A stretch of DNA of 64,000 bases from an uncultured Pelagibacteraceae bacterium (GTDB lineage: Bacteria > Pseudomonadota > Alphaproteobacteria > Pelagibacterales > Pelagibacteraceae), in NCBI GenBank assembly GCA_902596915.1, contig CACJVQ010000003.1:1-64000 (forward strand). The letters are read 5' to 3'. Within the stretch, counting starts at the first letter, position 1; each line of letters starts with the position of its first letter. Below the pieces are notes generated by a model that searched no databases, was not told the DNA's origin, and was given only the letters and a program-made list of their open reading frames with translations. A program made the translations under genes and the position numbers. This document shows, piece by piece, positions 6,334 through 33,576 of this stretch.

Positions 6334-6339
6334 AAATTT

Positions 6340-10427: not shown

Positions 10428-10814
10428 ATGATTGGTTATGTAATGGTGGGAACAAATAATTTAGATACTGCCATTAAGTTTTATGATGAAGTTTTGGAAG
10501 TCATCGGACTATCAAGAAACGAAACTGTTGAAAACGATTATGCAGCATATGGAAAGAAAGATACAAACGAAATAGAGTTTTACATTACAAAACCGTTTAA
10601 TAAAAAAGAAGCAACTTTTGGAAATGGAACGCAAATATCATTTATAACATCTTCGAGAGTTATTGTTGATAAATTTCACGAAATAGGACTAAAAGCAGGA
10701 GGTACTAGCGAAGGATCAGGAGGTGAACGACCAGAAGGTTCGGGAGTTTATTATTCTTACGTTCGTGATCTTGATGGAAATAAAATTTGTACCTTCACTA
10801 ATAGCAAAGAATAA
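10428..10814 (+). CDS. VOC-family (glyoxalase/bleomycin resistance) protein
   Basis: 128 aa, a single vicinal-oxygen-chelate domain with the beta-alpha-beta-beta-beta pattern. It starts IGYVMVGTNNLDTAIKFYDEVL and ends with SYVRDLDGNKICTF, the usual beginning and end of glyoxalase-like domains. Glu and His metal-ligand positions are only partly recognisable. It could be a lyase, an isomerase or a binding protein. It sits in the 7.1-13.4 kb operon, 30 bases after the aldehyde dehydrogenase gene. No closer function can be given. Confidence 0.8.
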   Translation: MIGYVMVGTNNLDTAIKFYDEVLEVIGLSRNETVENDYAAYGKKDTNEIEFYITKPFNKKEATFGNGTQISFITSSRVIVDKFHEIGLKAGGTSEGSGGERPEGSGVYYSYVRDLDGNKICTFTNSKE

Positions 10815-10818
10815 TACT

Positions 10819-17905: not shown

Positions 17906-18838
17906 ATGAATATTTCTCCTGAAAATAAAGATTTAAAAAATACTTATTTGGCAATAGTTACAATGCTCTTAGCAATTCTATGCGTAGACATGTATATGGT
18001 TGTAATCAAGTTTTTAGGAGATGAGTACTCGGTAATTCAGCTTGCCGTTTTTAGAAATATAGCAGGTGTAATCCCTCTATTTATCCTTATTTTATTTACT
18101 AAAGAGTACCTATCAGTTTTTAAAAACTTAAATAATAAATTTTTAATTTTAAGTTTTTTTAGAGGTTTAGGCTTTTTATCAATGAATATTTTTATATTTA
18201 TTTCTGTAATTAATCTCGAATTTGCTACTGCGATGGTGCTTACTTTTTCATCTCCTTTTTTTATCGTAATTTTATCAATTATTTTTTTAAAAGATAAAGT
18301 TGGTATTTATAGATGGTCTGCGATTTTTATTGGATTTTTTGGTGTAGTTTTAATTATGCAACCAACAAGTGATATATTTAATTTTTATTCTATTTTTCCA
18401 ATTTTAACTGCAATTGCATGGGCTTTCACAGTTATAATATTAAAATTTATACCCGAAGGTCACTCTACAGCTAAAATTCAGCTTTATACTTTAATATTTA
18501 ATGTAGTTGGAGGAGTGATACTATTTTTAATAACCACTGGACATACGGATATAAAGAGCACTCAAGACTTTCTGTTAATGACTTTGACTGGAATTCTAGG
18601 TGGGACAGCTGCAATACTTTTCATTTATGCATATAGACTAATTTCTGCAAGCAAGATGGCATCTTTTGAATATTTTGGAATCCCATCATCTTTTGTTTTG
18701 GGTTGGTTGTTTTTTAATGAAGCGCCTTGGGAACAATTATTCCCTGGAGTATTTGTAATTGTTTTTGCAGGAATGATTATTATTTGGAGAGATAAGGTTA
18801 AACAAAAAAGTACTAAGGTAAGTAGAGAGATTAATTAG
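17906..18838 (+). CDS. EamA/DMT-family permease
   Basis: 310 aa with about ten membrane helices and two EamA repeats. It has helix ends FLKDKVGIYRWSAIFIGFFGVVL and FFNEAPWEQLFPGVFV, as in S-adenosylmethionine- or riboflavin-type DMT permeases. It overlaps the 3' end of the convergent proV gene by 8 bases and is divergent from the iron alcohol dehydrogenase. It is closely similar in layout to the EamA gene at 36003 (both have RRWSA/YRWSA segments after helix 4). Substrate unknown. Confidence 0.88.
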   Translation: MNISPENKDLKNTYLAIVTMLLAILCVDMYMVVIKFLGDEYSVIQLAVFRNIAGVIPLFILILFTKEYLSVFKNLNNKFLILSFFRGLGFLSMNIFIFISVINLEFATAMVLTFSSPFFIVILSIIFLKDKVGIYRWSAIFIGFFGVVLIMQPTSDIFNFYSIFPILTAIAWAFTVIILKFIPEGHSTAKIQLYTLIFNVVGGVILFLITTGHTDIKSTQDFLLMTLTGILGGTAAILFIYAYRLISASKMASFEYFGIPSSFVLGWLFFNEAPWEQLFPGVFVIVFAGMIIIWRDKVKQKSTKVSREIN

Positions 18839-19877
18839 CAGATTTCATTGACTTCATAACTATTGCTCTATCAATTTCACCAATCAATTTTCCCGTTTCT
18901 GTATCTACTACTGGAAATTTCTGATCTGTATCAACTAGTTTATCAATCAATGTCTCAATTTTTGAATCATGTGGAATATTATTAGATCCATCTTCAAATA
19001 ATTTTTTTGTATCATCACAACATTCCTCTCTCATTACTTTACTGGCACTTAAAACTTTATATTTTGGAACATCTTCACAAAAATCTTTTACGTATTGATC
19101 CTTAGGATTTGCAACAATTTCTTCTGGGGTACCAACTTGTGAAACCTCCCCATCTTTCATAATAGCAATATGATCTCCCATCTTTATTGCTTCTAAAAAA
19201 TCGTGCGTAATAAAAACCATTGTCTTTTGAAGTTTTTCTTGAATTTTTAACAATTCATCCTGCATTTCTCTTCTAATTAGTGGGTCTAGTGCAGAAAAAG
19301 GTTCATCAAAAATTAAGATTTCTGGATCAACTGCTAGTGCCCTTGCCAATCCAACTCTTTGTTGCATACCACCAGAAAGTTCTCTTGGATAATTATTGTG
19401 CCAACCTTCCAGGCCAACCATTTTTAAAACCTCCATTGATTTTTCTATTCGGTCATTCTTTTTGTTACCTCTTATCTCTAATCCATAACCAATATTTTCA
19501 ACTACTGTTCTATGTGGGAATAGTCCAAAGTGTTGAAAAACCATACTCATTTTATTTCTTCTTAAATCTAAAAGGTCTCTACCACTCATTTTCGTTACAT
19601 CAACATCATCCATTTTGACTATACCAGAAGTTGGTTCGATTAATCTTGAAATACATCTGACTAAAGTTGACTTTCCACTACCAGATAAACCCATTACAAC
19701 AAATGTTTCACCTTTCTCAATTGAAAAGCTCACATCTTTAACTGCAACAACGTGTCCAGTTTTTTCTTGGACTTCTTTTATTGATAAATTTTTATCTAAA
19801 CCTTTAATAATTCTTTTTTCGTCTGGGCCAAATAATTTCCAAACATTAGTACAAGTTATTTTTGCTTGATTACTCAT
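18831..19877 (-). CDS. proV: Glycine betaine-type ABC transporter ATPase (copy 1)
   Basis: ProV/OpuAA-type ATPase, 348 aa. It begins with the family's N-terminal segment (NVWKLFGPDE) and has Walker A GLSGSGKST at 63-71, the VFQHFGLFPHRTV Q-loop, signature LSGGMQQR, Walker B LIFDEPFSALDP and H-loop FITHDF. A C-terminal CBS-like regulatory part (about 275-345) ends in GKLIGEIDRAIV. The gene is divergent from the proW fusion with 81 bases between, so it probably serves that permease. A second ProV lies at 25117. Substrate: glycine betaine, carnitine or another quaternary amine. Confidence 0.9.
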   Translation of the reverse strand: MSNQAKITCTNVWKLFGPDEKRIIKGLDKNLSIKEVQEKTGHVVAVKDVSFSIEKGETFVVMGLSGSGKSTLVRCISRLIEPTSGIVKMDDVDVTKMSGRDLLDLRRNKMSMVFQHFGLFPHRTVVENIGYGLEIRGNKKNDRIEKSMEVLKMVGLEGWHNNYPRELSGGMQQRVGLARALAVDPEILIFDEPFSALDPLIRREMQDELLKIQEKLQKTMVFITHDFLEAIKMGDHIAIMKDGEVSQVGTPEEIVANPKDQYVKDFCEDVPKYKVLSASKVMREECCDDTKKLFEDGSNNIPHDSKIETLIDKLVDTDQKFPVVDTETGKLIGEIDRAIVMKSMKSAN

Positions 19878-19958
19878 ATTTTGTTATTTTAATAACATAA
19901 AAATAGACAATATTTTCCTTTAAAAGTAAAATTATTTATTTTAAAATTTTGATAAATT

Positions 19959-22076
19959 ATGTCATCTGAAGTCTCAAGTATCCAGAGTAAACCAATTTCA
20001 TCTAAGAATATAATTACATATTCTTTAGTTCTACTAACTTTTTTAGTTGCTTTATGGTTATCTTTTCAAAGTGAAGGTCCTTCAAAAATGCCGAAAGTTG
20101 TAACTGATCAATTTACATTTACGGCGTGGGTAAATGAAGGCGAAGATTACTTAAAGAAAAATTATAGATGGATTACAAAAATAATAGCTAGTTATATAAA
20201 AAATATTTATTATTTCGTTGAAGACTTTCTTCTAGACTCCCCTTGGCTTTTAATTGCAGCATTAATATTTTTACCTTGTTTAATTGCAGGTGGCCTAAGA
20301 TTGGGTCTGTATTCTTTATTCGTTATTTATTTTTGGGGTGCAACAGGTATGTGGGAACCATCTCTTCAAACTGTGGCACTGATGGGTTTATCTGTACTAA
20401 TGTGTGTAGTTGTGGGTGTAACCTTGGGAGTTATGTGCTCTCAGAGTGATCGATTTGAAAATTTTATGAAGCCTATTTTAGATACAATGCAAGTAATGCC
20501 AGCTTTTGTTTATCTGTTTCCTGCTCTATTCTTTTTTGGCATTGGAGGAGCTCCAGCTATATTGGCCACTATGATTTATTCAATGCCTCCAATAATTAGA
20601 CTAACAAATACAGGAATTAGACAAGTTTCGGCGGAGACAATAGAGTCAGCAACGTCATTTGGCTCAAGTAAATTACAACTTTTATTTAAAATTAAAATTC
20701 CACTTTCATTGCCAAGTATAATGATGGGTATTAACCAAGTTATAATGATGGCATTGGCACTTGTAGTTCTTGCATGTTTTATCGGAGCTGAAGGGATTGG
20801 TGGTCAAGTGTGGCAAGCAATTAGAAGACTTGATGTTGGATGGGCAATGGAAGGAGGACTTTGTATTCTTTTTATGGCAATAATGTTTGACAGATTTAGT
20901 ATGTCTTTCAGTAAAACAGAACAATCTCTACCTTCTAATGTTCAAAAATTTTATTTGCTCCCTCAATCTTGGGAAAAATATTTAATTGCAAGACTTATAG
21001 AAAAACCTTTAGAATTTTTAAGTGGATTAACAAATTTTGTCTGCATTAATTTAACGAGATCAATTGCTTATGTATTTGAATTTTGCATTTCGTTATCAAA
21101 TAAAAATACTGCAAGAGATATAGGTGAAGCTATAACAAGGAGATATTATATCATACCCTCATTTATACTTATTCTGGCTATTTCCTTCATTGACTCTTAC
21201 ATGATTAGTATAGGATCTTTTCCTGAAGAGTGGAGATTGTCAATTAGACAACCAATTTCTAGCGCTGTAGACTCTTTAACAGTAAATCCTGGCTTTATTG
21301 CATTTACTAAGGCTCTAAGAGGGTTTGTTTATCTTAAGCTTTTACGCCCACTTGATATTTTCTTAACTCATGTGCCATGGTGGTACACACTAGGTGTATT
21401 TTCTGCAATTGGATATTTCACTGTTGGTATAAGATTTGCAATTATCACTGCTTTGTTATTACTATTTATCGGTGCTTGTGGGATATGGCCTCAATCAATG
21501 ATAACACTATCATCTGTTTTAGTGTCTGTAGCTTTATGTTTTATTATTGGAGTTCCTCTTGGAATAATTGCTTCTTACAATGAGAGATTTAGAAATGTTC
21601 AAAACGTTGTTTTAGATGCTATGCAAACATTGCCTTACTTCTGTTATTTAATTCCTGTGTTAATGTTTTTTGGAGGAGGTGTTGTTTCAGCTATTTTAGC
21701 AACAGTTATATACTCCATTCCACCTATTATTAGATTAACATCTTTAGGCTTAACTCAAGTATCTGGAACCTACTCAGAAGTTTCACGTTCATTTGGTGGT
21801 ACTTTATTGCAAACTTTAAATAAAATTAAATTCCCATTAGCGGTACCAAGTTTAGTGATTGGATTTAATCAAACAGTAATTATGGCTTTTGCTATGCAAA
21901 TTGTTACACCATTGATTGGTGGAAAGGGACTAGGATTAGAGGTATTTAATGGATTAGCTAGATCAGATACTGGTAGAGGTTTGGCCGCAGGCATAGGAAT
22001 AGTATTATTAGCAATAATTATAGACAGAATATCACTCGCTTGGACAAAAAAGCAAAGAGAGGCTTTGGGTTTATAA
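19959..22076 (+). CDS. proW: Glycine betaine-type ABC permease, two ProW domains fused
   Basis: 705 aa, twice the length of ProW. Two permease domains lie in tandem: about residues 80-330 and 455-700, each with its own EAA loop (ESATSFGSSKLQLLFKIKIPL and EVSRSFGGTLLQTLNKIKFPL) and matching helix pairs (the segment QVMPAFVYLFPALFFFGIGG against QTLPYFCYLIPVLMFFGGG). One chain would thus form the full transmembrane dimer. The binding-protein gene follows 90 bases downstream and the ATPase is divergent upstream. Such double permeases are known in marine alphaproteobacteria (from memory). Confidence 0.9.
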   Translation: MSSEVSSIQSKPISSKNIITYSLVLLTFLVALWLSFQSEGPSKMPKVVTDQFTFTAWVNEGEDYLKKNYRWITKIIASYIKNIYYFVEDFLLDSPWLLIAALIFLPCLIAGGLRLGLYSLFVIYFWGATGMWEPSLQTVALMGLSVLMCVVVGVTLGVMCSQSDRFENFMKPILDTMQVMPAFVYLFPALFFFGIGGAPAILATMIYSMPPIIRLTNTGIRQVSAETIESATSFGSSKLQLLFKIKIPLSLPSIMMGINQVIMMALALVVLACFIGAEGIGGQVWQAIRRLDVGWAMEGGLCILFMAIMFDRFSMSFSKTEQSLPSNVQKFYLLPQSWEKYLIARLIEKPLEFLSGLTNFVCINLTRSIAYVFEFCISLSNKNTARDIGEAITRRYYIIPSFILILAISFIDSYMISIGSFPEEWRLSIRQPISSAVDSLTVNPGFIAFTKALRGFVYLKLLRPLDIFLTHVPWWYTLGVFSAIGYFTVGIRFAIITALLLLFIGACGIWPQSMITLSSVLVSVALCFIIGVPLGIIASYNERFRNVQNVVLDAMQTLPYFCYLIPVLMFFGGGVVSAILATVIYSIPPIIRLTSLGLTQVSGTYSEVSRSFGGTLLQTLNKIKFPLAVPSLVIGFNQTVIMAFAMQIVTPLIGGKGLGLEVFNGLARSDTGRGLAAGIGIVLLAIIIDRISLAWTKKQREALGL

Positions 22077-22105
22077 AAACAAGCAAAAGATACATTTTTC
22101 CCAGT

Positions 22106-22135
22106 TTACAAACGACTAGTTTTTGTTTTAAAATA
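22106..22135 (+). promoter_or_regulatory. Predicted sigma-70 promoter of proX
   Basis: TTTACA (22106-22111) and TAAAAT (22130-22135), each 5 of 6 to consensus, are separated by 18 bases. They lie in the 90-base gap between the proW fusion and proX, about 31 bases before the ATG. This would give the binding protein its own transcript. By-eye prediction. Confidence 0.5.
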
Positions 22136-22166
22136 AAGCTTTAATTAATTAAATGAGAGGAAATAA

Positions 22167-23177
22167 ATGAGATTATCAAAAACGATATCAGCTCTATTTT
22201 TATCTTTCGTAATTTTATTTGCTAGTCTTACTCAGGCAAATGCAAAAAGATTACATGCTGCTATTGCTGACTGGACAGGTGGAATTATTACTTGTGAAGT
22301 TGCGGTAGGGATTCTTGAAAGAGAAATGGGCTACAAAGTTAAACAAACAGTATTCCCGTCAGGAACTGGATTGTGGGAAGCAATTGCTGCTGGTGAACTT
22401 GATTTTGCTTGTGAAAGCTGGCCAAGTTATGCAGAAGCAGATGACGTTATGTTTAATGAAGATTTAATTTATGATGGTAAAGTTGTAAAATCATATAAGG
22501 GTGATGGAACAGTTGATCTTTTAGGAACAACTGGAATTATCGGTATGTCTGATTACTGGATCCCAAGATATGCAGCTGAAAAATTTGGAATTAAATCTTG
22601 GAGAGATTTAAACAAACATAAAAAAGAGTTTGCTACTATTGAAACAGGCGGCAAAGGAAGATTAATTGGATGTCCTGTAGCTGGTTGGAACTGTCACGAC
22701 CAAAAAAGATTAGATCTTTTAGGAATTGACTTTCAAGCAGATGAACTAGGAACAGAGGCTGCTGCTGTTGCAGAAGCTAAAGCTGCTTACATGAGAAAAG
22801 AGCCATTCTTATTATACCTATGGTCACCACACTGGTTCTTTGGTGAGTTTGATATGGTAGGAGTAGGTCTTCCTGATTACAAAACTTGTGCAGGAGATAC
22901 ATTTACTGAAGCAAATAACTGGAAGACTTGTGGTACAGACGGATGGCCAGCAACTGGTTGGGACAAAGATTACACTATGAACTACGGAAATCCTGATACA
23001 TTTGCAAAACCAGAACATGCTAAAGCAAAAGCTTTTTTTGAAAGAATGAAATTAGACAACTTAGATCAAGCTAAGATGCTTGTTGAAGTTGATATCAAAA
23101 AAAGAGACGTTAAAGAAGTTGTTAATGAATGGTTAGACAACAATCCAGATAAGTGGAAAAGTTGGTTACCTAACTAA
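22167..23177 (+). CDS. proX: Glycine betaine/quaternary amine solute-binding protein, ProX/OpuAC-like
   Basis: Periplasmic binding protein, 336 aa with a signal peptide (MRLSKTISALFL..., cleavage after ANA near residue 26). The mature part has Trp- and Tyr-rich segments expected of the aromatic cage that holds a trimethylammonium group: ADWTGG, CESWPSY and LWSPHWFF. A Shine-Dalgarno (GAGAGG) lies 6 bases before the ATG and its own promoter is predicted upstream; a strong terminator follows. Neighbouring genes for gamma-butyrobetaine and carnitine breakdown suggest carnitine, gamma-butyrobetaine and glycine betaine as candidate ligands. Confidence 0.9.
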   Translation: MRLSKTISALFLSFVILFASLTQANAKRLHAAIADWTGGIITCEVAVGILEREMGYKVKQTVFPSGTGLWEAIAAGELDFACESWPSYAEADDVMFNEDLIYDGKVVKSYKGDGTVDLLGTTGIIGMSDYWIPRYAAEKFGIKSWRDLNKHKKEFATIETGGKGRLIGCPVAGWNCHDQKRLDLLGIDFQADELGTEAAAVAEAKAAYMRKEPFLLYLWSPHWFFGEFDMVGVGLPDYKTCAGDTFTEANNWKTCGTDGWPATGWDKDYTMNYGNPDTFAKPEHAKAKAFFERMKLDNLDQAKMLVEVDIKKRDVKEVVNEWLDNNPDKWKSWLPN

Positions 23178-23200
23178 AAATTAAACTTTAAAAAATAATT

Positions 23201-23233
23201 AAGGGCTTTGTGAAAACAGAGCCCTTTTTTTTT
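23201..23233 (+). terminator. Rho-independent terminator after proX
   Basis: A 10-bp stem (23201-23210 with 23217-23226, one G-U pair), a 6-base loop TGAAAA, and a run of nine T ending at 23233. The next gene's ATG comes only 2 bases later, so that gene has no room for a Shine-Dalgarno sequence and depends on readthrough or a separate start. Confidence 0.92.
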
Positions 23234-23235
23234 AC

Positions 23236-23874
23236 ATGCATATAATTCATAGAGGAATTGTAAATAAAAATTACAAAGAAAACTGTCTAGAGTCGTTTAA
23301 AGCATCCTTTAAAAGAAAATATGGAATTGAAACTGATATTCACATAACCAAAGATAATAAATTTGTATGCTTTCACGATTTTACTTTAAGAAGAATTTTT
23401 AAAATAAATAAAAGTATAAAAAATATCAATTATTTAGATTTGAAAAAAATAAAATATAAAAAATTTAAAATACCTCTCTTAAAGGAAGTTTTGGAGTTAT
23501 CGAAAAATAAATTTCCTATATTTATAGAAATAAAACCATTACTTAATCAAAAGCTCTTATCTAAGTTAATAAGTGAGACTAAAAAATTTAAAAGATGTAT
23601 TTTTATCTCCTTCAAGCATGAAAATATCCAAAATCTTTTGAAAATTAATTCAAAAGCAAAAGTTGGTATATCATTTTCTAATAAAGACAGTGTTAAATCA
23701 ATTTTAAAACATGGGATAAATAAAAAAATAAAGTATCTAATATTAGATAAGAAGTTTTTAGATAATAAGAAAGTACAACTAATGAGTAAGGAAAAATATT
23801 ACTACACAATAAAAACTAAAAAAGAATTTATAAAATATAACAAAAATAATAATCTTATATTTGAAAATTTATGA
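23236..23874 (+). CDS. Glycerophosphodiester phosphodiesterase-family protein
   Basis: Cleaves glycerophosphodiesters to glycerol-3-phosphate and an alcohol such as choline. 212 aa, short for the family (usually about 240-250). The N-terminal IIHRG gives the catalytic His, followed by GIETDIHITKD (Glu and Asp metal ligands), FHDFTLRR with the second His, and FIEIKP with the Glu and Lys. No signal peptide, so probably cytoplasmic. It starts right after the proX terminator and overlaps the convergent dioxygenase gene by 6 bases. Release of choline from glycerophosphocholine would fit the quaternary-amine neighbourhood, but this is inference. Lys-rich composition is stronger than in the neighbours. 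Confidence 0.82.
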   Translation: MHIIHRGIVNKNYKENCLESFKASFKRKYGIETDIHITKDNKFVCFHDFTLRRIFKINKSIKNINYLDLKKIKYKKFKIPLLKEVLELSKNKFPIFIEIKPLLNQKLLSKLISETKKFKRCIFISFKHENIQNLLKINSKAKVGISFSNKDSVKSILKHGINKKIKYLILDKKFLDNKKVQLMSKEKYYYTIKTKKEFIKYNKNNNLIFENL

Positions 23875-25002: not shown

Positions 25003-25116
25003 AAGAAATAATTATCTAAAATCAAAAAAATTTCAATTCAATTAATAGTTGTATTTAATAAAGTTATTTTATTGTTGGTTTGCTTTGATGTATTAAAAGA
25101 ACTAAACTTTAAAAAA

Positions 25117-26142: not shown

Positions 26143-26157
26143 TTAGATTAAATAGTT

Positions 26158-27009
26158 ATGAAAAAAAGTTTAAGTAACATCGTTGATTTAGTCAAATACC
26201 CCATTGATGATTTACAATCACCAAAGATTAAGAAAATAATTGAAAAATGTAAAACTGAATTAGACAGTGACAGCTGTTCGGTAATTCCTAATTTCATTTT
26301 ACCAAATTCTTTAAATGTAATGAAGAAAGAATTAGAGCAACAGCTCAATGAGGTTTATATGTCTAAAGAGAGTATCAACGCTTATCTTTATGCAAAAGAC
26401 GACCCTACTCTTCCCAAAGATCACCCAAAAAGAATATTTATGGATAGATTTAATGGATATTTAAATTCAGATTGTTTTGCAAAAAATTCTGAGATGAAAT
26501 TTTTATATGAAACCGAAGAATTATTAAAGTTTGTATCTGCTTGCTTAGGTATTGCACCTATATATAGATGGGCTGATCCTTTAGCCTGTCATGCATATAA
26601 TGTTATGGAACCTGATGGAATATTACCTTGGCATTTTGATAGTTGTGAATTTACTTTAAGTTTAATGATCCAAAAACCAGAAGAAGGAGGAATATTTGAA
26701 TATTGTCCTAACATAAGAGAACCAGGTAACGAAAAATTTGATGAGGTGAAGAAAGTACTAGATGGGGATCGAACAAGAGTAAAACGACTTGAACTTGAAC
26801 CTGGTGATTTGCAAATATTTAAAGGTAGATTTACTATGCATAGAGTAACTAAAGTTAAGGGAAAAATATCACGTTTTATGTGTATACCTGCGTATGTATT
26901 GGATCCTTGGAGAGTAAATACGCCTGAACATTCAAAAGCAATTTATGGAAAAGTATTGCCCATACATTTAGAAAGAAATAAAGTTAGATCTGATGGATTA
27001 ACAGATTAA
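26158..27009 (+). CDS. Fe(II)/2-oxoglutarate dioxygenase, PhyH/HalD-like
   Basis: 283 aa. The beta-helix core carries His159-x-Asp161 (WHFDSCEF), distal His228 (MHRV) and Arg239 (SRFM), a complete Fe and 2-oxoglutarate site. The pattern GGIFEYCPNIREPGNE followed by LEPGDLQIFKGRF resembles the group that includes the amino-acid halogenases BesD/HalD. In those the Asp is replaced by Gly; here it is kept, which predicts hydroxylation, not halogenation. The stop overlaps the next ATG (TAATG). Substrate could be a trimethylammonium compound or amino acid given the neighbours; unproven. Confidence 0.8.
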   Translation: MKKSLSNIVDLVKYPIDDLQSPKIKKIIEKCKTELDSDSCSVIPNFILPNSLNVMKKELEQQLNEVYMSKESINAYLYAKDDPTLPKDHPKRIFMDRFNGYLNSDCFAKNSEMKFLYETEELLKFVSACLGIAPIYRWADPLACHAYNVMEPDGILPWHFDSCEFTLSLMIQKPEEGGIFEYCPNIREPGNEKFDEVKKVLDGDRTRVKRLELEPGDLQIFKGRFTMHRVTKVKGKISRFMCIPAYVLDPWRVNTPEHSKAIYGKVLPIHLERNKVRSDGLTD

Positions 27010-27794
27010 TGTCATACAATTTCAAAAATAAAAAAATTGTTATCTCAGCTGGGGCATCAGGAATTGGATGGGCAACAGCAAAAGAGTGTCTTGAAAAAGG
27101 TGCAAGGGTATTCGTTTGTGATGTTGATAAAAAATCTATAAATAAATTAAAAAAAAATCCTTTGAATAATAAAAGATTGTTTTCTTTTCATTGCGATGCC
27201 TCAAACGAAAACGATGTAATAAATTTCTTTAAAGAAATTAAAAAAAAAACACAAAAGATTGATGCGCTAATTAATAATGTTGGAGTTGCAGGACCAACAG
27301 GAACTATGGATAAACTTAAAACAAAAGATTGGGAACAAACTTTAAAGATAAATGTAATTAGTCATTTTATTTTTTCAAAATTAGCAATCCCAATGTTGAA
27401 AAAAAATAAAGGTGGCTCAATAGTTAATCTATCCTCTACAGCAGGTATATTTGGATTTCCATTAAGATCTCCATACTCAGCAAGTAAATGGGCGGTAGTT
27501 GGAATGACAAAAACTTTAGCAATGGAATTAGGAAAGTTTAAAATTAGAGTAAACGCAATTTGTCCAGGAACTGTAAAAGGAGACAGAATGGGAAGAGTTA
27601 TTAGAGACAAAGCTAAATTTTTAAAAATTTCAAAAAAAGCAGTGGAGAGTGAATTTGTTTCTATGACTTCTCTTAATACCTGGGTTTACGAAAAAGATAT
27701 TGGTAAAATGTGTTGCTATTTAATTTCTGACGAGTCTTCTAGAATTTCTGGTCAAGTAGTTGGTGTTGATGGCAACACTTTAAGAATGCATTAG
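27009..27794 (+). CDS. Short-chain dehydrogenase/reductase
   Basis: NAD(P)-linked oxidoreductase, 261 aa. The cofactor motif is GASGIGWA, with NNVG near residue 94, Ser in NLSSTAG, and the catalytic YSASK (Tyr and Lys near 156-160). The acidic residue after the second strand (CDVD) favours NAD. Start ATG overlaps the stop of the dioxygenase gene, so the two are translationally coupled. A hydroxylated product of that oxygenase is the natural candidate substrate. It is convergent with an alpha/beta hydrolase gene 4 bases away. Exact substrate unknown. Confidence 0.9.
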   Translation: MSYNFKNKKIVISAGASGIGWATAKECLEKGARVFVCDVDKKSINKLKKNPLNNKRLFSFHCDASNENDVINFFKEIKKKTQKIDALINNVGVAGPTGTMDKLKTKDWEQTLKINVISHFIFSKLAIPMLKKNKGGSIVNLSSTAGIFGFPLRSPYSASKWAVVGMTKTLAMELGKFKIRVNAICPGTVKGDRMGRVIRDKAKFLKISKKAVESEFVSMTSLNTWVYEKDIGKMCCYLISDESSRISGQVVGVDGNTLRMH

Positions 27795-27798
27795 AGAT

Positions 27799-28569
27799 TT
27801 AAATACTTTCAATAAATTGTATTAAGTTATTTGCAATTTGATCAGGAGCTTCTATCAAAAAAGAATGTTTTACCTCTGGTATAATAACTAATTTAGAATC
27901 TTTTACCTCGTTTGACATTTTTTTGTTATGAGAAGGAGTGCATCCACCATCGTTTTCACCTGTCATAAACAAGCAGGGTTTCTTTATATCTTTTAACCAA
28001 GAGATCATCTCAGTTTCCGCATAAATTTTAAAAACATTAATAAATACATCTTTATCTGTATCTATTACCTGTTTTAATCTCCTGGATACTAGGTCCGGAT
28101 TTTTTTCAATAAAATTGTCTGTAAACCATCTGTTAGTGAGATTTTTTAATGTTTGTTCAACGCCCTTATCTTTTAGATCTGAAATTACATTCCAAACTTT
28201 TTGTTTATCTTCATTAGATCTTCCTGCAACTGTTGATAATAGGCCTACTGACAAAACTCTTTCAGGAAACTTTTTAGCATAAGCAGGGGCAATCATGCCC
28301 CCTAAAGAATGTCCCATAAAATGGGCTTTTTGGATGTTTGTCTTTTCTCTTACTCTTTCAAGATCTAATACAAGATCATCTAAGTTAAAATCTTTATTTT
28401 CTACAGGTGATTTTCCATGGCCTCTTAAATCGTATGTGACAACTGTAAACATGCTCTCTAGTTTTGGGGTTATAAATCTCCATGCATCCTCCGCACCTCC
28501 AACTCCATGAGTTAAAAATATTGCAGGTCCTGATCCTGTAACTGAGTAATTGCAATCTATGATGCTCAT
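27799..28569 (-). CDS. Alpha/beta-fold hydrolase
   Basis: 256 aa, single alpha/beta-hydrolase domain. Oxyanion segment LTHGVGGAEDAW (19-30), nucleophile elbow GHSLGG with Ser88, acid Asp in GENDGG and His in VKHSFLIE complete the triad. Similar to 3-oxoadipate enol-lactonase and RutD-type proteins. It is 6 bases downstream of a luciferase-like flavin enzyme, a pairing repeated at 38-42 kb. In Pseudomonas a hydrolase of short-chain acylcarnitines (HocS) is part of the carnitine operon (from memory); this gene could play that part, but the sequence alone does not show it. Confidence 0.85.
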   Translation of the reverse strand: MSIIDCNYSVTGSGPAIFLTHGVGGAEDAWRFITPKLESMFTVVTYDLRGHGKSPVENKDFNLDDLVLDLERVREKTNIQKAHFMGHSLGGMIAPAYAKKFPERVLSVGLLSTVAGRSNEDKQKVWNVISDLKDKGVEQTLKNLTNRWFTDNFIEKNPDLVSRRLKQVIDTDKDVFINVFKIYAETEMISWLKDIKKPCLFMTGENDGGCTPSHNKKMSNEVKDSKLVIIPEVKHSFLIEAPDQIANNLIQFIESI

Positions 28570-28575
28570 AGATAT

Positions 28576-29610
28576 TTAAGCTACTTGTATATTAGATTTT
28601 TTGAAATATGGGATTACGTTTTCACCAATTCTATACATTGACTCTATTAGGTCTTCTTGAGATTGTCCAAAACTTGAACTAAGAATTACCTCATCAACTC
28701 CGGCTTCAGCATAAACGCTAAGTTTATCGATCATTTCATTTAAAGGACAAATTAAAAGATTTTCTTTTAATTCTTCTAAAGTTTGTTTTCTTGGTAAAGC
28801 TTCTATATTCCCTTCTTTTACTTTTCCTGGTCCTGTAAACATATTGTCAAATCTTTTGTAATATTCATAAGCAAGTTTTGTTTTCTCTTTAGCTTCATTT
28901 TCATCTTTTGCTAGATAAGCCATTCTTTGCATGGAAAGTTTAAGTAATTTTCCATTTTCACCTAGTTGAATGCAACCTTCTTTAAATGCATTAACTCTAC
29001 TTAACAAAAGATCTTTTGTTCCTGATAATACTGTTGATTGAACATGAAATCCTCTTGAAGCTGCATCTTTTATACTTTCTAAATTCATTGCGGCAACCAT
29101 CATTGGTATTGGATTGCTTATGGGTCGAGGCATTATTGTTAATGGTTCGAAGTCATAGTATTTGCCTTTATACGAAACTTCTTTATTTTTTAATAACAAT
29201 TGCAGAACCTCTAGAGACTCTACAAATTTTTCTTTTGATTGTTCTATTGGGGTACCTAGTCTTTTCATTTCCCATGGAAATGCTCCTCTTCCTACACCTA
29301 AAATTAATCTTCCATCAGTTAAAATATCGGCAGTAGCTACTTCACCAGCATATGTTCTCATGTCGTGTAGAGGTAAAACAACAATACCTGTTGTTATTTT
29401 AATATTTTTTGTAATTGATGCAATTTTTACAGCCATCTGCAATGGTGATGGCATCATTAGTAAGTTTATTAAATGATGCTCTGGTATTGATACAGTTGCA
29501 TAACCAAGTTTTTCAGCAGTCACACATTCTTCAAGCATATTTTTAAAATGCTGCTTTGAACCAATGCTTGTATCTGGCATGTAACTTGTTAAAAAATGAT
29601 TAAAATCCAT
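28576..29610 (-). CDS. Luciferase-like (LLM) flavin-dependent monooxygenase (copy 1)
   Basis: 344 aa TIM-barrel flavoenzyme of the bacterial-luciferase family, which uses reduced FMN or F420 from a partner reductase. It begins MDFNHFLTSYMPDT, with SIPEHHL near residues 41-47, TGIVVLPLHD near 93-102, and GVGRGAFPWE near 135-144 for flavin phosphate binding. Substrate specificity in this family is wide (alkanes, sulfonates, pyrimidines, nitrilotriacetate). It lies between an alpha/beta hydrolase gene (6 bases) and the carnitine dehydrogenase gene (36 bases) in the same direction. A second LLM enzyme with its own alpha/beta hydrolase is at 38020. No closer function. Confidence 0.86.
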   Translation of the reverse strand: MDFNHFLTSYMPDTSIGSKQHFKNMLEECVTAEKLGYATVSIPEHHLINLLMMPSPLQMAVKIASITKNIKITTGIVVLPLHDMRTYAGEVATADILTDGRLILGVGRGAFPWEMKRLGTPIEQSKEKFVESLEVLQLLLKNKEVSYKGKYYDFEPLTIMPRPISNPIPMMVAAMNLESIKDAASRGFHVQSTVLSGTKDLLLSRVNAFKEGCIQLGENGKLLKLSMQRMAYLAKDENEAKEKTKLAYEYYKRFDNMFTGPGKVKEGNIEALPRKQTLEELKENLLICPLNEMIDKLSVYAEAGVDEVILSSSFGQSQEDLIESMYRIGENVIPYFKKSNIQVA

Positions 29611-29646
29611 ATAACTAAATTACCATTTTAAGTTTTCTTTAGATAT

Positions 29647-30591
29647 CTATTTTCTGATTTTATTTTCATATTTTTTTCTAAGATTTTGTAAGTTGACTAA
29701 GTACTCATCTCTTATGTTTGATAATTGATTGATTGACTTTCCTTTTGCTTGCTTTTTTGTGCCAGATATCAATCTTTCTGAGAGTTTTTTTGATAATTTT
29801 GGTGCTTTAAGCTTGGTCCATGGGAGTTTTAATGCGGGCCCAAATTGTTCAAGCATATGTTTCATTCCAGCCTTTCCTCCTGCTAAATGAAAAGTTAAAA
29901 ACGTCCCCATTAATGAGTATCTTAAGCCTGGACCATCTTCAATAGCTCTATCTAAATCCTCTGTTGAGGCATACCCTTCATTTATAATATGAAGTGCTTC
30001 TCTCCATAAAGCTTCTTGCAGTCTATCAGATAGATATCCTGGCAGTTCCTTTTTAAGGATAATTGGGTTCATTGAGATCGATTTATAAAATTTATTTGCT
30101 TCATTTAATGATTTAGAACTTGTTTTTTTTCCTGGAACTATTTCAACTAAAGGTAGTAAATAAACAGGATTAAATGGATGGGCAATGATACCTCTTTTAT
30201 TATTTTTACATTCTGAAAAAATCCTTGAGGGTAATAATCCTGATGAGCTTGACGATATCAAAACTTCAGATTTACAATTATTTGAAATTTGACTTATTAA
30301 TTGAGTTTTAAGTTTATAGTTTTCAGGAGCACATTCTTGGATTAGATCTGCGTCTTGAACTGCACTCTCTAATGAAGAAAAAAATTTTAAATTATTTAAG
30401 TTAATTTTTTTTTTATTAAATAGTTTTTTTACAAATGGTGTGGCTCTTTTTATTTCTTGGATTAATCTATTTCTTTGAATTAAATTTTTATCGTATGCTA
30501 AAACTTTTATGTTATGAGCCAAGAATCTTATTGTCCACCCTACTCCAATTACTCCTGTGCCAATTACTGCCACTTTTTTAATTTTAGACAT
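29647..30591 (-). CDS. lcdH: L-carnitine dehydrogenase-like 3-hydroxyacyl-CoA dehydrogenase family protein
   Basis: Carnitine dehydrogenase oxidises L-carnitine to 3-dehydrocarnitine with NAD. 314 aa, matching stand-alone bacterial carnitine dehydrogenases (about 320). Rossmann motif GTGVIG at 11-16, acidic Asp in LAYDKN, the ECAPEN segment, the catalytic-His region AHPFNPVYLLPLVEIVPG, and a C-terminal helical domain with GPGLRYSLMGTF. Its start overlaps the stop of the BKACE gene upstream, the enzyme that acts next in the pathway. A 3-hydroxybutyryl-CoA dehydrogenase is the alternative, made unlikely by this pairing and the thioesterase nearby. Confidence 0.82.
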   Translation of the reverse strand: MSKIKKVAVIGTGVIGVGWTIRFLAHNIKVLAYDKNLIQRNRLIQEIKRATPFVKKLFNKKKINLNNLKFFSSLESAVQDADLIQECAPENYKLKTQLISQISNNCKSEVLISSSSSGLLPSRIFSECKNNKRGIIAHPFNPVYLLPLVEIVPGKKTSSKSLNEANKFYKSISMNPIILKKELPGYLSDRLQEALWREALHIINEGYASTEDLDRAIEDGPGLRYSLMGTFLTFHLAGGKAGMKHMLEQFGPALKLPWTKLKAPKLSKKLSERLISGTKKQAKGKSINQLSNIRDEYLVNLQNLRKKYENKIRK

Positions 30592-31478
30592 TACTTGTGT
30601 TTTACAAGCTTTAATTTTTTCCTTGTTTCTTCTGCAGTCATTATCGATGCTCCAAGATCAGTTACAATTCTAATTGCTTTTTCAACTAACTGAGCATTAG
30701 TTGCAAGTTTACCTTTTGATATATATAAATTATCTTCTAAACCAACTCTTGGGTTTCCACCCATAACAACTGTTTGTGCTACAAAAGGCATTTCATTTTT
30801 TGATATAGCAAAGCCTGACCACACTCCTTGTTCTGGCATTATATCTTTCATTGCTTGCATTGCTAACGGAGTAGCTGGAGCTCCCCAAGGAATACCTAAA
30901 CACATTTGGAACATTGGAGGATCATCTAATAAACCCTCTTTATATAATTGAGAACCAAACCACATATTTCCTAAATCGAATGCCTCTATCTCTGGTTTAA
31001 CTTTAATTTCCTGCAATTTTTTTGCAGCTTTTCTTAAATCATTAGGAGTATTAACTGTAATAACTGAACCATCTCCAAAATTTAATGTACCAGCATCTAA
31101 TGTACAAATTTCTGGCAAGAATTGTTCTGCATTAGCTATTCTTTCCATAACATTTGCCATGTCAGTCATTGGGCCAAAATCTAGAGGGTTTTTCCCTTGG
31201 CCAATGTCCAAATCACCACCCATCCCAGTTGTTAAATTTAAAATTACATCAGTTTCGCTTGACCTAATTCTATCAACTACTTCTTTATATAATTCTAGCC
31301 TTCTACTTGGTGTTCCATCCTCTTCTCTCACATGAATATGTGCAATTGCAGCTCCAGCTTTTGCTGCCTCTATTGCTGATTTAGCGATTTGATCTGGTGT
31401 TTTAGGTAAGTCAGGGTGTTTGCTTGCAGTATCTCCTGACCCTGTTACAGCACATGATACAAAAACGTTGTTGTTCAT
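30591..31478 (-). CDS. cdhC: BKACE-family enzyme, probable dehydrocarnitine-cleaving
   Basis: Beta-keto acid cleavage enzymes (DUF849) react a beta-keto acid with acetyl-CoA to give acetoacetate and a CoA ester; with 3-dehydrocarnitine the product is betainyl-CoA. 295 aa. N-terminal SCAVTGSGDT, Zn ligands His47 and His49 in AHIHVRE, and a conserved Glu in GLEDNLY are visible. It overlaps the carnitine dehydrogenase gene. The gene letter follows Pseudomonas cdhCAB as I recall it. Other BKACE substrates (3-keto-5-aminohexanoate, beta-ketoadipate) exist, but context supports carnitine. The 29-base gap upstream is shared with a divergent aldolase gene. Confidence 0.82.
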   Translation of the reverse strand: MNNNVFVSCAVTGSGDTASKHPDLPKTPDQIAKSAIEAAKAGAAIAHIHVREEDGTPSRRLELYKEVVDRIRSSETDVILNLTTGMGGDLDIGQGKNPLDFGPMTDMANVMERIANAEQFLPEICTLDAGTLNFGDGSVITVNTPNDLRKAAKKLQEIKVKPEIEAFDLGNMWFGSQLYKEGLLDDPPMFQMCLGIPWGAPATPLAMQAMKDIMPEQGVWSGFAISKNEMPFVAQTVVMGGNPRVGLEDNLYISKGKLATNAQLVEKAIRIVTDLGASIMTAEETRKKLKLVKHK

Positions 31479-31491
31479 AATTTATTTTTCA

Positions 31492-31499
31492 ACTATATT
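31492..31499. promoter_or_regulatory. Overlapping divergent -10 elements in a 29-base gap
   Basis: ACTATATT in the gap between the BKACE gene (minus) and the aldolase gene (plus) reads TATATT on plus (31494-31499) and TATAGT on minus (31492-31497), each 5 of 6 to consensus. A weak plus -35 TTGTTC (31471-31476) lies 17 bases away, inside the BKACE gene. Predicted starts are about 2 and 7 bases before the two ATGs, so both mRNAs would be almost leaderless. By-eye prediction. Confidence 0.4.
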
Positions 31500-31507
31500 T
31501 TAAAATC

Positions 31508-32239
31508 ATGCAAATAGAAATATCAGAATTACAGAAAGATTTAGCTGCAACTTTTAGATGGACAGCTAGACTTAATATGCATGAGGGTGTCGCAAACCAC
31601 TTTAGTGCATGCATACCTGGTACATCTGATTTTTACTGCAATAAAGCAGGTATTCATTTTAGTAGAATTAAGGCTAGTGATCTAATCTTAGTAACTAAGG
31701 AAAACAAAGAGGAGTTAAAGAATAAGCCAGACGTTATTGATCCTACAGCCTTGTATATCCATGGTGCAATTCATGAAAAAGCACCTCATGCTAGATGTAT
31801 TTTTCATGTCCATTCTAAATATGCAACTGCCCTTTCTACATTGAAAGACCCAGTGTTAAAACCAATAGATCAAAACACAATGATGTTTTACAACAGAGTT
31901 TCTGCATACAAAGAATTTGGAGGTCTAGGGCTTGAGGACGAGTCAATTAAAATGGCAAATGCTCTCGGTAATAAACAACATATGTTGCTTTCAAATCATG
32001 GAATTTTAACCACAGGGAGAACAGTGGCTGAAGGTTTTAATTCTCTTTATTATTTTGAAAGAGCGGCGCAAACATATCTTACAGCTCTGTCAACAAACCA
32101 GGAACTTAATGTGGTTAGCCATGAAGTTGCAGAGAAAACCGCAGAAGAACATGCAAACTTTCCAACTGATTTTGCAAATCTATTCCTATCTCAAATAAAA
32201 TTGATTTTAGATAAAGAAGAACCTGATTACAAAAATTAA
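31508..32239 (+). CDS. Class II aldolase/adducin-family protein
   Basis: 243 aa. Typical class II aldolase domain with Zn-binding His residues in IHGAIHEKAPHARCIFHVHS (three or four His) and the later LLSNHGILTTG. N-terminal RLNMHEGVANHFSACIPG matches the phosphate/substrate-binding segment of L-fuculose-phosphate aldolase relatives, with NHFS in place of NIS. The family includes aldolases, decarboxylases and epimerases. The next gene starts on the base after the stop, and the operon continues with a CitE-like lyase and a betainyl-CoA-type thioesterase. Function within carnitine or related C4 metabolism is possible but not shown. Confidence 0.87.
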   Translation: MQIEISELQKDLAATFRWTARLNMHEGVANHFSACIPGTSDFYCNKAGIHFSRIKASDLILVTKENKEELKNKPDVIDPTALYIHGAIHEKAPHARCIFHVHSKYATALSTLKDPVLKPIDQNTMMFYNRVSAYKEFGGLGLEDESIKMANALGNKQHMLLSNHGILTTGRTVAEGFNSLYYFERAAQTYLTALSTNQELNVVSHEVAEKTAEEHANFPTDFANLFLSQIKLILDKEEPDYKN

Positions 32240-33100
32240 ATGGATTTGAACAAATTAAAAGTAAGACGAAGTTTTATTTTTACACCTGGACTTCATCCTG
32301 AAATGTTTCCTAAAGCAATTGCATCAGGTGCAGACATGGTTTGTATTGAATTAGAGGATGGGATAGCAATCAATGATAAAGCAGAAGCTAGAAAAAATAC
32401 AATAGAAGCACTTAAAACCCTCGAAGTCAAAAATGATGTAGAGTTAGTTGTCAGATTAAATAATCAAAGAACAAAGTTTGGTCTTTTAGATTTAGAAGGT
32501 TTCATATCTAACAAAATAAATTTAAAGGCTATTATGTTACCGAAAGTTAAAACTCCAGACGAAATAACATTTATAGATGATCTTTTAACAGACTGTAATT
32601 TAGATACGGATCTTCACGTAATAATGGAAACAAATGAGGCTTTAGAAAATATTTATAATATTGCTCATGCCAGTAAAAGAATAGTTGCTCTATATTTTGG
32701 TGGAGTTGATATGGCAGCTGAGCTTAGAGTTGAAAATAAATGGGAAAATCTTGTCCATGCGAGATCTAAATTAGTTCATGCAGGCGCAAGTGTTGGTATC
32801 GATGTAATAGATGTACCTTATTTAGACTTAGAGAATATGGAAGGAATGAGGAAAGAGGCTGAACAAGTAAGAAACTTGGGTTTTACTGGAAAAGGCTCCA
32901 TTCATCCAAAACAAATAAAAATTTTAAATGAAGTATTTACGCCGCCTCAAGATGAAATTATCAAGGCTAAAAAAATTTTAGAAGAATTTAATAATTCAAA
33001 TACTGGTCTAGTAGTCATAGACGGTAAACTTATAGAAAAACCCGTCCTTCGAGAAATGAAAAGGAAAATATTGATAGCAGATAAAATAAATAAAGTTTAA
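32240..33100 (+). CDS. CitE-like / HpcH-HpaI aldolase family lyase
   Basis: 286 aa TIM-barrel lyase of the malyl-CoA/citramalyl-CoA lyase (CitE) type. N-terminal RRSFIFTPGLHPEM, the metal ligand segment CIELEDGIA (Glu, Asp), the Arg in RLNNQRTKFG, the second ligand Glu in METNEALENI, and GSIHPKQI near the C terminus are all present. Acts on a CoA ester or an analogue, releasing acetyl-CoA, glyoxylate or pyruvate. It follows the class II aldolase gene with no gap and precedes the thioesterase gene by 8 bases. Substrate not identified. Confidence 0.87.
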   Translation: MDLNKLKVRRSFIFTPGLHPEMFPKAIASGADMVCIELEDGIAINDKAEARKNTIEALKTLEVKNDVELVVRLNNQRTKFGLLDLEGFISNKINLKAIMLPKVKTPDEITFIDDLLTDCNLDTDLHVIMETNEALENIYNIAHASKRIVALYFGGVDMAAELRVENKWENLVHARSKLVHAGASVGIDVIDVPYLDLENMEGMRKEAEQVRNLGFTGKGSIHPKQIKILNEVFTPPQDEIIKAKKILEEFNNSNTGLVVIDGKLIEKPVLREMKRKILIADKINKV

Positions 33101-33108
33101 ATTAAATT

Positions 33109-33576
33109 ATGCCATATCATCTTGCCACTAGAAAAGTTATCAAGGATTGGACAGACTATAATGAACATATGAATATGGCATACTATGTTCTTATTTTTGA
33201 TCAAGCATGGGAAACAATGCTTAATAAGTTTCATATGGGTGGTTCAAACGCACAAATTAATAAAAGAAGTACTATGGTGGTAGAGACAAGAACAACCTAT
33301 GACAATGAAGTAAAAGAAAATGATGAAGTAGATGTGTATTGTGCTTTCTTTGATCATGATAAAAAAAGACTACATTTAAAATGTGAAATGTACGAAAAGA
33401 AATCAAAAAAACTAGCTGCAACAATTGAAAGCCTGTCGCTTTATATTGATCTTGATAAAAGAAAAGTTACAGAATTTGAAGAAGATAAAATCCAGATTAT
33501 GGATGACTTTATAAATAAAAATAAGGCTTCTTTTAACTCAGAAAATTTAATGTTTTCTGGTAAGCTGAAAAAATAG
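33109..33576 (+). CDS. cdhB: Hotdog-fold thioesterase, probable betainyl-CoA thioesterase
   Basis: Hydrolyses an acyl-CoA thioester; betainyl-CoA would give glycine betaine and CoA, the last step of the carnitine route. 155 aa, 4-hydroxybenzoyl-CoA-thioesterase type. The motif WTDYNEHMNMAYY (14-26) holds the catalytic Asp16 and matches the WxDYNGHM signature of carnitine-pathway thioesterases, which in some rhizobia are fused to the carnitine dehydrogenase (from memory). It is 1.6 kb from the lcdH/BKACE pair on the other strand, which supports the assignment. Gene letter as in Pseudomonas cdhCAB, from memory. Confidence 0.78.
   Translation: MPYHLATRKVIKDWTDYNEHMNMAYYVLIFDQAWETMLNKFHMGGSNAQINKRSTMVVETRTTYDNEVKENDEVDVYCAFFDHDKKRLHLKCEMYEKKSKKLAATIESLSLYIDLDKRKVTEFEEDKIQIMDDFINKNKASFNSENLMFSGKLKK

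What the first reader, a model, noticed from the sequence alone, without database searches (positions are those of the whole stretch)
18831..33576. A complete gamma-butyrobetaine/carnitine to glycine betaine route in a SAR11-type genome
Seen: a quaternary-amine importer (ProV, double ProW, ProX), a gamma-butyrobetaine-dioxygenase-like oxygenase with HxD...H intact, a carnitine-dehydrogenase-like protein overlapping a BKACE-family gene, and a thioesterase with the WTDYNxHM signature. Known: in Pseudomonas the same three steps (dehydrogenase, dehydrocarnitine cleavage with acetyl-CoA, betainyl-CoA thioesterase) turn carnitine into glycine betaine. Inference: these cells import gamma-butyrobetaine or carnitine and get glycine betaine plus acetoacetate. 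The oxygenase, dehydrogenase and thioesterase lie in separate transcription units, and extra genes (dioxygenase, SDR, LLM enzyme, hydrolase, class II aldolase, CitE-like lyase) are mixed in, suggesting further branches.
Basis: partly seen in the sequence, partly recalled or inferred. Interest (0 to 1): 0.72.

Follow-up and report, generated by a model that had tools for sequence, protein, structure and literature searches.

The report
SAR11 island turning carnitine into betaine
A small ocean bacterium carries a gene island that probably turns gamma-butyrobetaine and carnitine into the nutrient glycine betaine, a route known from other bacteria; a very similar island was reported in Arctic relatives in 2025, and here enzyme trees and neighbouring genes support the proposed chemistry.

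Summary
Confirmed, and mostly right. In trees BKACE and CDH fall inside clades whose members form BKACE-CDH-thioesterase (cdhC-A-B order) operons elsewhere. The oxygenase shares five substrate-cage residues with BBOX genes beside such operons. In five deeper Pelagibacteraceae loci BKACE, CDH and BBOX form one operon, with ALDH and acetoacetate-CoA ligase genes divergent from it, as the chemistry predicts; the window's own genome encodes that ligase, a BHMT and a dimethylglycine dehydrogenase. Weak points: CDH and BBOX score below NCBI's curated cut-offs; 13 of 64 BBOX-bearing genomes lack both CDH and BKACE; the thioesterase assignment is moderate; ProX's substrate is unknown; nothing was assayed. 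The island is not new in kind: a 17-20 gene Arctic SAR11 island naming CDH, BBOX and BKACE was published in 2025 (PMC12421898). New here: step-by-step support, CDH and BKACE in 53 of 247 family genomes each (49 both), records that by name are not Arctic, and a second 2-oxoglutarate oxygenase linked to CDH.

The parts
8004..8945 (+). 3-hydroxyisobutyrate-dehydrogenase-like protein (HADH of the published island, by name)
   Evidence: Pfam NAD_binding_2 132 bits and NAD_binding_11 76 bits; gene name in the published island
8967..10397 (+). aldehyde dehydrogenase of the island type
   Evidence: Pfam Aldedh; 54% identical to the ALDH next to the BKACE-CDH-BBOX operon of L172; relatives of that ALDH (51-59%) lie in the islands of other SAR11 loci
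18831..19877 (-). ProV1, ATPase of a quaternary-amine ABC importer
   Evidence: TIGR01186 363.7 bits, cut-off 326.6
19959..22076 (+). double ProW: two permease domains in one 705-aa protein
   Evidence: TIGR03416 428 bits, cut-off 363, two stretches; two BPD_transp_1 stretches
22167..23177 (+). ProX-like substrate-binding protein; substrate unknown
   Evidence: Pfam OpuAC 150 bits; closest solved chain 4xz6, 72 bits; conserved Trp positions in A3
23236..23874 (+). glycerophosphodiester phosphodiesterase
   Evidence: Pfam GDPD 76 bits
23869..25002 (-). gamma-butyrobetaine-dioxygenase-like Fe/2OG oxygenase (proposed gamma-butyrobetaine to L-carnitine)
   Evidence: TIGR02409 320.6 bits, best of three related models but under its cut-off 414.75; iron ligands and cage residues
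25072..26142 (+). ProV2, second importer ATPase
   Evidence: TIGR01186 371 bits, cut-off 326.6
26158..27009 (+). OXY2: HalD-like Fe/2OG oxygenase with HFD...H, linked to CDH in other SAR11
   Evidence: Pfam HalD 43.8 bits, cut-off 26; HFD and distal H invariant in 17 rows; directly upstream of CDH in 6 loci
27009..27794 (+). short-chain dehydrogenase, role unknown
   Evidence: Pfam adh_short_C2 194 bits
27799..28569 (-). alpha/beta hydrolase
   Evidence: Pfam Abhydrolase_1 104 bits
28576..29610 (-). luciferase-like (LLM) enzyme
   Evidence: Pfam Bac_luciferase 149 bits
29647..30591 (-). carnitine 3-dehydrogenase-like CDH (proposed L-carnitine to 3-dehydrocarnitine)
   Evidence: PRK07066 347.9 bits, best match but under cut-off 414; tree
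30591..31478 (-). BKACE (proposed 3-dehydrocarnitine + acetyl-CoA to betainyl-CoA + acetoacetate)
   Evidence: Pfam BKACE 306.6 bits; tree; H47, H49, E248, D249 invariant in the 35 rows compared
31508..32239 (+). class II aldolase/adducin family protein
   Evidence: PRK07490 299.9 bits, cut-off 260
32240..33100 (+). CitE/RipC-like C-C lyase
   Evidence: RipC model 242.9 bits, under cut-off 375
33109..33576 (+). 4HBT thioesterase (proposed betainyl-CoA hydrolysis)
   Evidence: only NCBIfam match at E 0.001 is the thioesterase end of carnitine 3-dehydrogenase PRK07531, 63.7 bits, cut-off for the whole protein 592; best genome-wide match is the CDH-linked or CDH-fused thioesterase in 12 of 17 outgroup genomes
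33580..34413 (+). TauD-family dioxygenase
   Evidence: Pfam TauD 203 bits
34419..35999 (+). choline-dehydrogenase-like GMC oxidoreductase
   Evidence: PRK02106 subfamily 740 bits, cut-off 605; betA equivalog 671, under its cut-off 732

Best explanation
This is a SAR11 quaternary-amine island. Its core oxidises gamma-butyrobetaine to L-carnitine (BBOX), L-carnitine to 3-dehydrocarnitine (CDH), and cleaves that with acetyl-CoA (BKACE) to betainyl-CoA and acetoacetate; a thioesterase probably frees glycine betaine. Acetoacetate is probably re-activated by the acetoacetate-CoA ligase encoded elsewhere in the genome, and glycine betaine is spent through BHMT and dimethylglycine dehydrogenase. Shown: gene presence, placement in trees, conserved neighbourhoods, downstream genes. 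Inferred: every substrate, and that ProX/ProW/ProV import carnitine or gamma-butyrobetaine.
For: Trees place BKACE and CDH in the operon-linked clades. In 13 of 19 outgroup loci (L090-L108) BKACE, CDH and a thioesterase matching the window's lie together (in L102 and L108 the thioesterase is fused to CDH), with 38-49% CDH and, but for L106 (32%), 50-58% BKACE identity over the 19; the order is that of caiX-cdhC-cdhA-cdhB of Pseudomonas aeruginosa (PMC5806209, abstract and passages). BBOX residues F177, F181, Y194, L205, Y366 (human numbering) equal those of four BBOX genes beside outgroup carnitine loci (L092:9292, L095, L098, L100); TmpA has Y177 and N205. BKACE-CDH-BBOX is one operon in L162, L166, L167, L168 and L172, and divergent from it lie an ALDH and then an acetoacetate-CoA ligase (753 bits, cut-off 520.9, in L172; 63-64% identical in the other four). 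Own genome: acetoacetate-CoA ligase 737.8 bits, human-like BHMT (E 7e-45 to 1lt7) followed by DMGDH (E 2e-176 to 5l46). CDH and BKACE co-occur, 49 of 53 each way.
Against: CDH and BBOX score under the curated cut-offs. N292 (recalled as a carboxylate contact in human BBOX) is S in SAR11 and A in L095, L098, L100; at 191 SAR11 has N where those three have S; two other BBOX-like genes beside outgroup carnitine loci (L092:4291, L101) have a different cage. 13 of 64 BBOX-bearing genomes have neither CDH nor BKACE, 9 of them at least 92% complete; of eight such loci fetched, six (L190-L195) keep the thioesterase. In 5 of 17 outgroup genomes the thioesterase's best match is not CDH-linked. No CoA-transferase of family PF01144 was found in the 78%-complete own genome. 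Acetoacetate-CoA ligase is common in the family (151 of 247 over cut-off) and was not found in 5 of the 36 BKACE genomes of the genus, so its presence alone is weak evidence. No regulator like CdhR appears among the genes profiled from 17906 to 37918.
Confidence: 0.68

Rival explanations
1. The CDH-BKACE-thioesterase chemistry is right but the starting compounds differ: the oxygenase hydroxylates another betaine (shorter, longer or sulfonium analogue) and the pathway acts on its 3-keto form.
For: BBOX is under the family cut-off and its nearest solved chain is TmpA, 172 bits, before human BBOX, 165 bits. Human residues Y177, W181, Y205 and N292 are replaced. 13 of 64 BBOX genomes lack CDH and BKACE.
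Against: The same replacements at 177, 181 and 205 occur in BBOX genes beside carnitine operons, of which L095 and L100 pass the BBOX cut-off and L098 does not. BBOX is in one operon with BKACE and CDH in 5 loci.
Confidence: 0.18
2. The island is mainly for choline and glycine betaine uptake and production (the published reading); the carnitine enzymes are a minor or decaying branch.
For: [quoted passage not shown] Choline-dehydrogenase-like, ALDH, GDPD and importer genes are present.
Against: CDH and BKACE are co-retained in 49 of 53 genomes each way; CDH is kept in most genomes even where it lies away from BKACE (27 of 30 BKACE genomes searched have it).
Confidence: 0.1
3. BBOX makes carnitine as a compatible solute, and CDH/BKACE serve only to remove excess carnitine.
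For: BBOX without CDH and BKACE in 13 of 64 genomes.
Against: Downstream use is encoded: acetoacetate-CoA ligase, BHMT, DMGDH.
Confidence: 0.04

Closest known systems
Arctic SAR11 glycine-betaine genomic island (PMC12421898, mBio 2025; section 7 and passages read, abstract seen among the passages)
   Same: By gene name, 13 clear and 2 plausible matches of the 17 listed genes. Clear: HADH, ALDH, GPDP, BBOX(1), three ABC subunits, CDH, BKACE, class II aldolase, thioesterase, CHDH, DMT. Plausible: ADH, BBOX(2).
   Different: No lactoylglutathione lyase or SMR gene was recognised among the window genes profiled (not every window ORF was profiled). The window has a fused double permease, an extra ProV, OXY2, LLM, hydrolase and CitE-like genes. 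In the parts read the paper gives no step-by-step carnitine route. Sequences were not compared directly with its isolates.
Pseudomonas aeruginosa caiX-cdhCAB-hocS carnitine operon (PMC5806209, abstract and passages)
   Same: The same three enzyme families; in other bacteria the relatives of the window's genes lie in that order.
   Different: In the window the thioesterase is in another run of genes, no AraC regulator was seen, and a BBOX is present.
Ruegeria pomeroyi CdhABC carnitine to glycine betaine (PMC12478193, passages)
   Same: A marine alphaproteobacterium whose CdhABC increase during growth on N-osmolytes.
   Different: It demethylates glycine betaine by the Mtg system; the paper proposes a BHMT for SAR11.

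Membership tests
CdhCAB-type carnitine-to-glycine-betaine pathway | dehydrogenase in the clade of BKACE-linked carnitine dehydrogenases | tested here: met
   45-row clade, SH-aLRT 98; all 18 rows labelled paralogue outside
CdhCAB-type carnitine-to-glycine-betaine pathway | NCBI L-carnitine dehydrogenase model PRK07066 over its cut-off | tested here: not met
   347.9 against 414 bits; outgroup L094 and L100 score 664 and 576
CdhCAB-type carnitine-to-glycine-betaine pathway | BKACE in the clade linked to carnitine dehydrogenases | tested here: met
   42-row clade, SH-aLRT 97. Four BKACEs that also neighbour a CDH-like gene (L106, L173, L180, L184) fall outside it
CdhCAB-type carnitine-to-glycine-betaine pathway | betainyl-CoA thioesterase orthologue | tested here: inconclusive
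   best match CDH-linked or fused in 12 of 17 outgroup genomes; kept in six of eight fetched loci that lack CDH and BKACE (L190-L197)
CdhCAB-type carnitine-to-glycine-betaine pathway | the three genes in one operon | tested here: not met
   BKACE and CDH overlap; the thioesterase is in another run on the other strand
CdhCAB-type carnitine-to-glycine-betaine pathway | enzyme activity on carnitine and 3-dehydrocarnitine | not testable with these tools
   needs purified proteins
gamma-butyrobetaine dioxygenase | HxD...H iron ligands | tested here: met
   human positions 202, 204, 347
gamma-butyrobetaine dioxygenase | TIGR02409 over its cut-off | tested here: not met
   320.6 against 414.75 bits; L098, beside a carnitine operon, is also under it (392.9)
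gamma-butyrobetaine dioxygenase | cage residues as in bacterial BBOX beside carnitine genes | tested here: met
   F177, F181, Y194, L205, Y366 shared with 4 of 6 such genes (L092:9292, L095, L098, L100; not L092:4291, L101); position 191 differs; site roles recalled
carnitine/gamma-butyrobetaine importer | binding of these ligands by ProX | not testable with these tools
Arctic SAR11 glycine-betaine island | same set of genes | tested here: inconclusive
   13 clear and 2 plausible of 17 by name; no direct sequence comparison

The most novel reading that the evidence does not exclude
OXY2 (26158-27009) is a second Fe/2-oxoglutarate hydroxylase dedicated to this route: it makes a 3-hydroxy quaternary amine (carnitine or an analogue, from a precursor other than gamma-butyrobetaine) that CDH oxidises, so SAR11 has a branched hub in which two oxygenases of different families feed one dehydrogenase-BKACE pair. 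Support: CDH lies directly downstream of OXY2 in 6 loci and close downstream in 4 more, with no BKACE on the fetched stretches; HFD...H suggests a hydroxylase rather than a halogenase (rule recalled).
Probability: 0.25. Interest if true: 0.6.

Novelty: new member of a known kind. Interest (0 to 1): 0.42.

Why it matters
SAR11 cells are among the most abundant in the ocean, and they are described as needing outside glycine and methionine or substitutes for them (passages of PMC12478193). If this route works, gamma-butyrobetaine and carnitine become a source of both through glycine betaine, and of two-carbon units through acetoacetate. The island is a ready target: one cultured, island-bearing SAR11 strain and labelled carnitine would settle it.

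Tried and rejected
Idea that the SDR replaces CDH where CDH is missing beside BKACE (L079, L080, L082, L085): rejected, CDH is elsewhere in those genomes (G083, G050, G002, G057). Idea that a PF01144 CoA-transferase handles acetoacetate: none in the own genome, which is incomplete; acetoacetate-CoA ligase found instead. Idea that acetoacetate-CoA ligase tracks BKACE across the family: not so, it is common without it. Solved-structure search by sequence for OXY2 gave nothing useful. A search for the phosphonate substrate of TmpA together with glycine betaine found no held paper.

Literature searches on this question. Most hits were seen only as listings. Of the nine papers whose passages I read (PMC12421898, PMC12636525, PMC12482172, PMC12478193, PMC8918994, PMC10579395, PMC5806209, PMC8931226, PMC10308909), in the passages shown only PMC12421898 names CDH, BBOX and BKACE in SAR11; PMC12636525 mentions carnitine metabolism in offshore genera in one sentence. 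PMC11485210 (SAR11 binding proteins) is not held.
Full report
WHAT IS THERE. The window is 64 kb of contig C3 of a 1.01 Mb, 44-contig, 78%-complete genome, 31.8% G+C. Its nearest named relatives in a scan with CDH are Pelagibacteraceae/Pelagibacterales records such as AG-439-G13, AG-916-B15 and SAG-MED17, with 96-97% identical CDH and the same gene order over the part they hold (L110-L113). CDH and BKACE overlap by one base, and BBOX, BKACE-CDH-LLM-hydrolase and aldolase-CitE-thioesterase-TauD-CHDH lie in separate runs of genes.

ENZYME IDENTITY. CDH's best curated model is L-carnitine dehydrogenase (347.9 bits, cut-off 414). BKACE matches Pfam BKACE at 306.6 bits. In a 63-row tree the SAR11 BKACEs fall in a 42-row clade (SH-aLRT 97) made of 24 CDH-linked BKACEs, 17 rows from SAR11 and related marine alphaproteobacteria, and PDB 3c6c; all 15 paralogue rows, PDB 9zsc and Kce (2y7d), and four BKACEs that also neighbour a CDH-like gene (L106, L173, L180, L184) are outside. 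In a 63-row CDH tree the SAR11 CDHs fall in a 45-row clade (98) of BKACE-linked and thioesterase-fused CDHs, with the 18 rows labelled paralogue outside. Both are quick trees without bootstrap, and the CDH paralogues were chosen as weaker hits. Eight BKACE positions are kept in at least 95% of 25 CDH-linked rows and in none of eight paralogues, among them acidic D89 and D106; that these hold the quaternary ammonium is my inference.

THE OXYGENASE. It scores best on the BBOX model but below cut-off, and its nearest solved chains are TmpA and human BBOX, almost level. At human positions 177, 181, 194, 205 and 366 (site roles recalled) it reads F, F, Y, L, Y, as do four of six BBOX-like genes beside outgroup carnitine loci (L092:9292, L095, L098, L100); the other two (L092:4291, L101) do not, and TmpA reads Y, F, Y, N, Y. 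At 191 SAR11 has N where L095, L098 and L100 have S. L095 and L100 pass the BBOX cut-off, L098 does not. A second, distant BBOX-like gene in the own genome (C6) is nearer TmpA (336 bits) than BBOX (255 bits), under both cut-offs.

NEIGHBOURHOODS. In 20 fetched SAR11 regions and in outgroups, island genes recur. In 13 of 19 outgroup loci (L090-L108) BKACE, CDH and a thioesterase matching the window's lie together. Of 113 CDH hits counted, 83 are next to BKACE only, 5 to BKACE and BBOX, 1 to BBOX only, 6 to OXY2, 18 to none of these (loci, not independent genomes). The five BKACE-CDH-BBOX loci (L162, L166, L167, L168, L172) also carry, divergently, an ALDH and then an acetoacetate-CoA ligase. 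L172 continues with ProV, ProW, ProX and, one gene on, a choline-dehydrogenase-like gene. An acetoacetate ligase that close to the operon is what the BKACE reaction predicts. No thioesterase match was seen on those five stretches.

DISTRIBUTION. Among the same 247 genomes of the family: close BKACE in 53, CDH in 53, both in 49, BKACE only in 4, CDH only in 4. Close BBOX (E under 1e-100) in 64, of which 51 have BKACE and 13 have neither CDH nor BKACE; 9 of those 13 are at least 92% complete. So BBOX is more widespread than the cleavage route. Acetoacetate-CoA ligase is over its cut-off in 151 of 247. Some loci come from records whose names suggest the Mediterranean (SAG-MED17, SAG-MED46, MED-G42; reading of the names is mine), so the gene set is probably not confined to the Arctic. 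I recall, but could not confirm, that the AG- single cells are from the tropical GORG set.

THIOESTERASE. It carries WTDYNEHM and its only NCBIfam match is the thioesterase end of carnitine 3-dehydrogenase. Searched against 17 outgroup genomes, its best match is the CDH-linked or CDH-fused thioesterase in 12 (G495, G554, G296, G308, G304, G556, G436, G570, G292, G602, G499, G579) and another thioesterase in 5 (G254, G561, G493, G317, G577) (positions held). Of eight fetched loci with BBOX but from genomes without BKACE and CDH, six (L190-L195) keep it; the other two (L196, L197) are a 3.4 kb contig and a stretch at a contig end. I call this step probable, not shown.

DOWNSTREAM. On contig C9 the own genome has a human-like BHMT (E 7e-45 to 1lt7) followed by a dimethylglycine dehydrogenase (E 2e-176 to 5l46), beside a ProX and ProW. 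NCBIfam did not name the BHMT over any cut-off. PMC12478193 (passages) proposes that SAR11 couples glycine betaine demethylation to methionine by such a BHMT.

IMPORT. ProX is a distant relative of 4xz6 (recalled as the TMAO binder TmoX; the tool lists it as glycine betaine/proline-binding) and of glycine betaine binders. In other islands a quite different ProX (23-27% identical) takes its place. Specificity cannot be inferred; TmoX of SAR11 strain HTCC1062 binds TMAO and choline, with no detectable carnitine binding (PMC8918994, passages).

NOVELTY. [quoted passage not shown] By gene names the window is a variant of that island. The new parts here are the tree and neighbourhood tests, the acetoacetate link, the distribution and OXY2. 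I therefore score it as a new member of a known kind.

Noticed in passing
L162, L166, L167, L168, L172, L193, L194, L267; own genome C6:57857-58885: A TmpA-like oxygenase sits next to a protein of about 183 aa; the copy of L172 has a weak HD-domain match, just under Pfam's cut-off. The pair resembles TmpA-TmpB (recalled), which makes glycine betaine from a phosphonate. No such partner was seen beside the own-genome copy, which is near a contig end.
   Followed up: partly
L103, L104, L147 and relatives up to L160: The same protein family lies beside CDH (L103, L104) or the thioesterase (L147-L160) in carnitine clusters without a TmpA-like gene on the stretch; the L104 copy passes Pfam's HD cut-off narrowly. 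Its role there is unknown.
   Followed up: no
L201, L202, L204: Two OXY2 copies precede CDH away from BKACE; in L201 and, by similarity, in the other two a class II aldolase lies between them and CDH in a tight run.
   Followed up: partly
L190-L195: BBOX, ProV2 and the thioesterase remain in islands without CDH and BKACE, including a single-contig 99%-complete genome (G063).
   Followed up: partly
window 10723-11733 and 13365-14354: Two further homocysteine S-methyltransferase family genes, distinct from the BHMT on C9.
   Followed up: no
L203:4274-5527 and 5503-6765: A Rieske-type oxygenase and an M24 peptidase-family gene lie upstream of OXY2-CDH.
   Followed up: no
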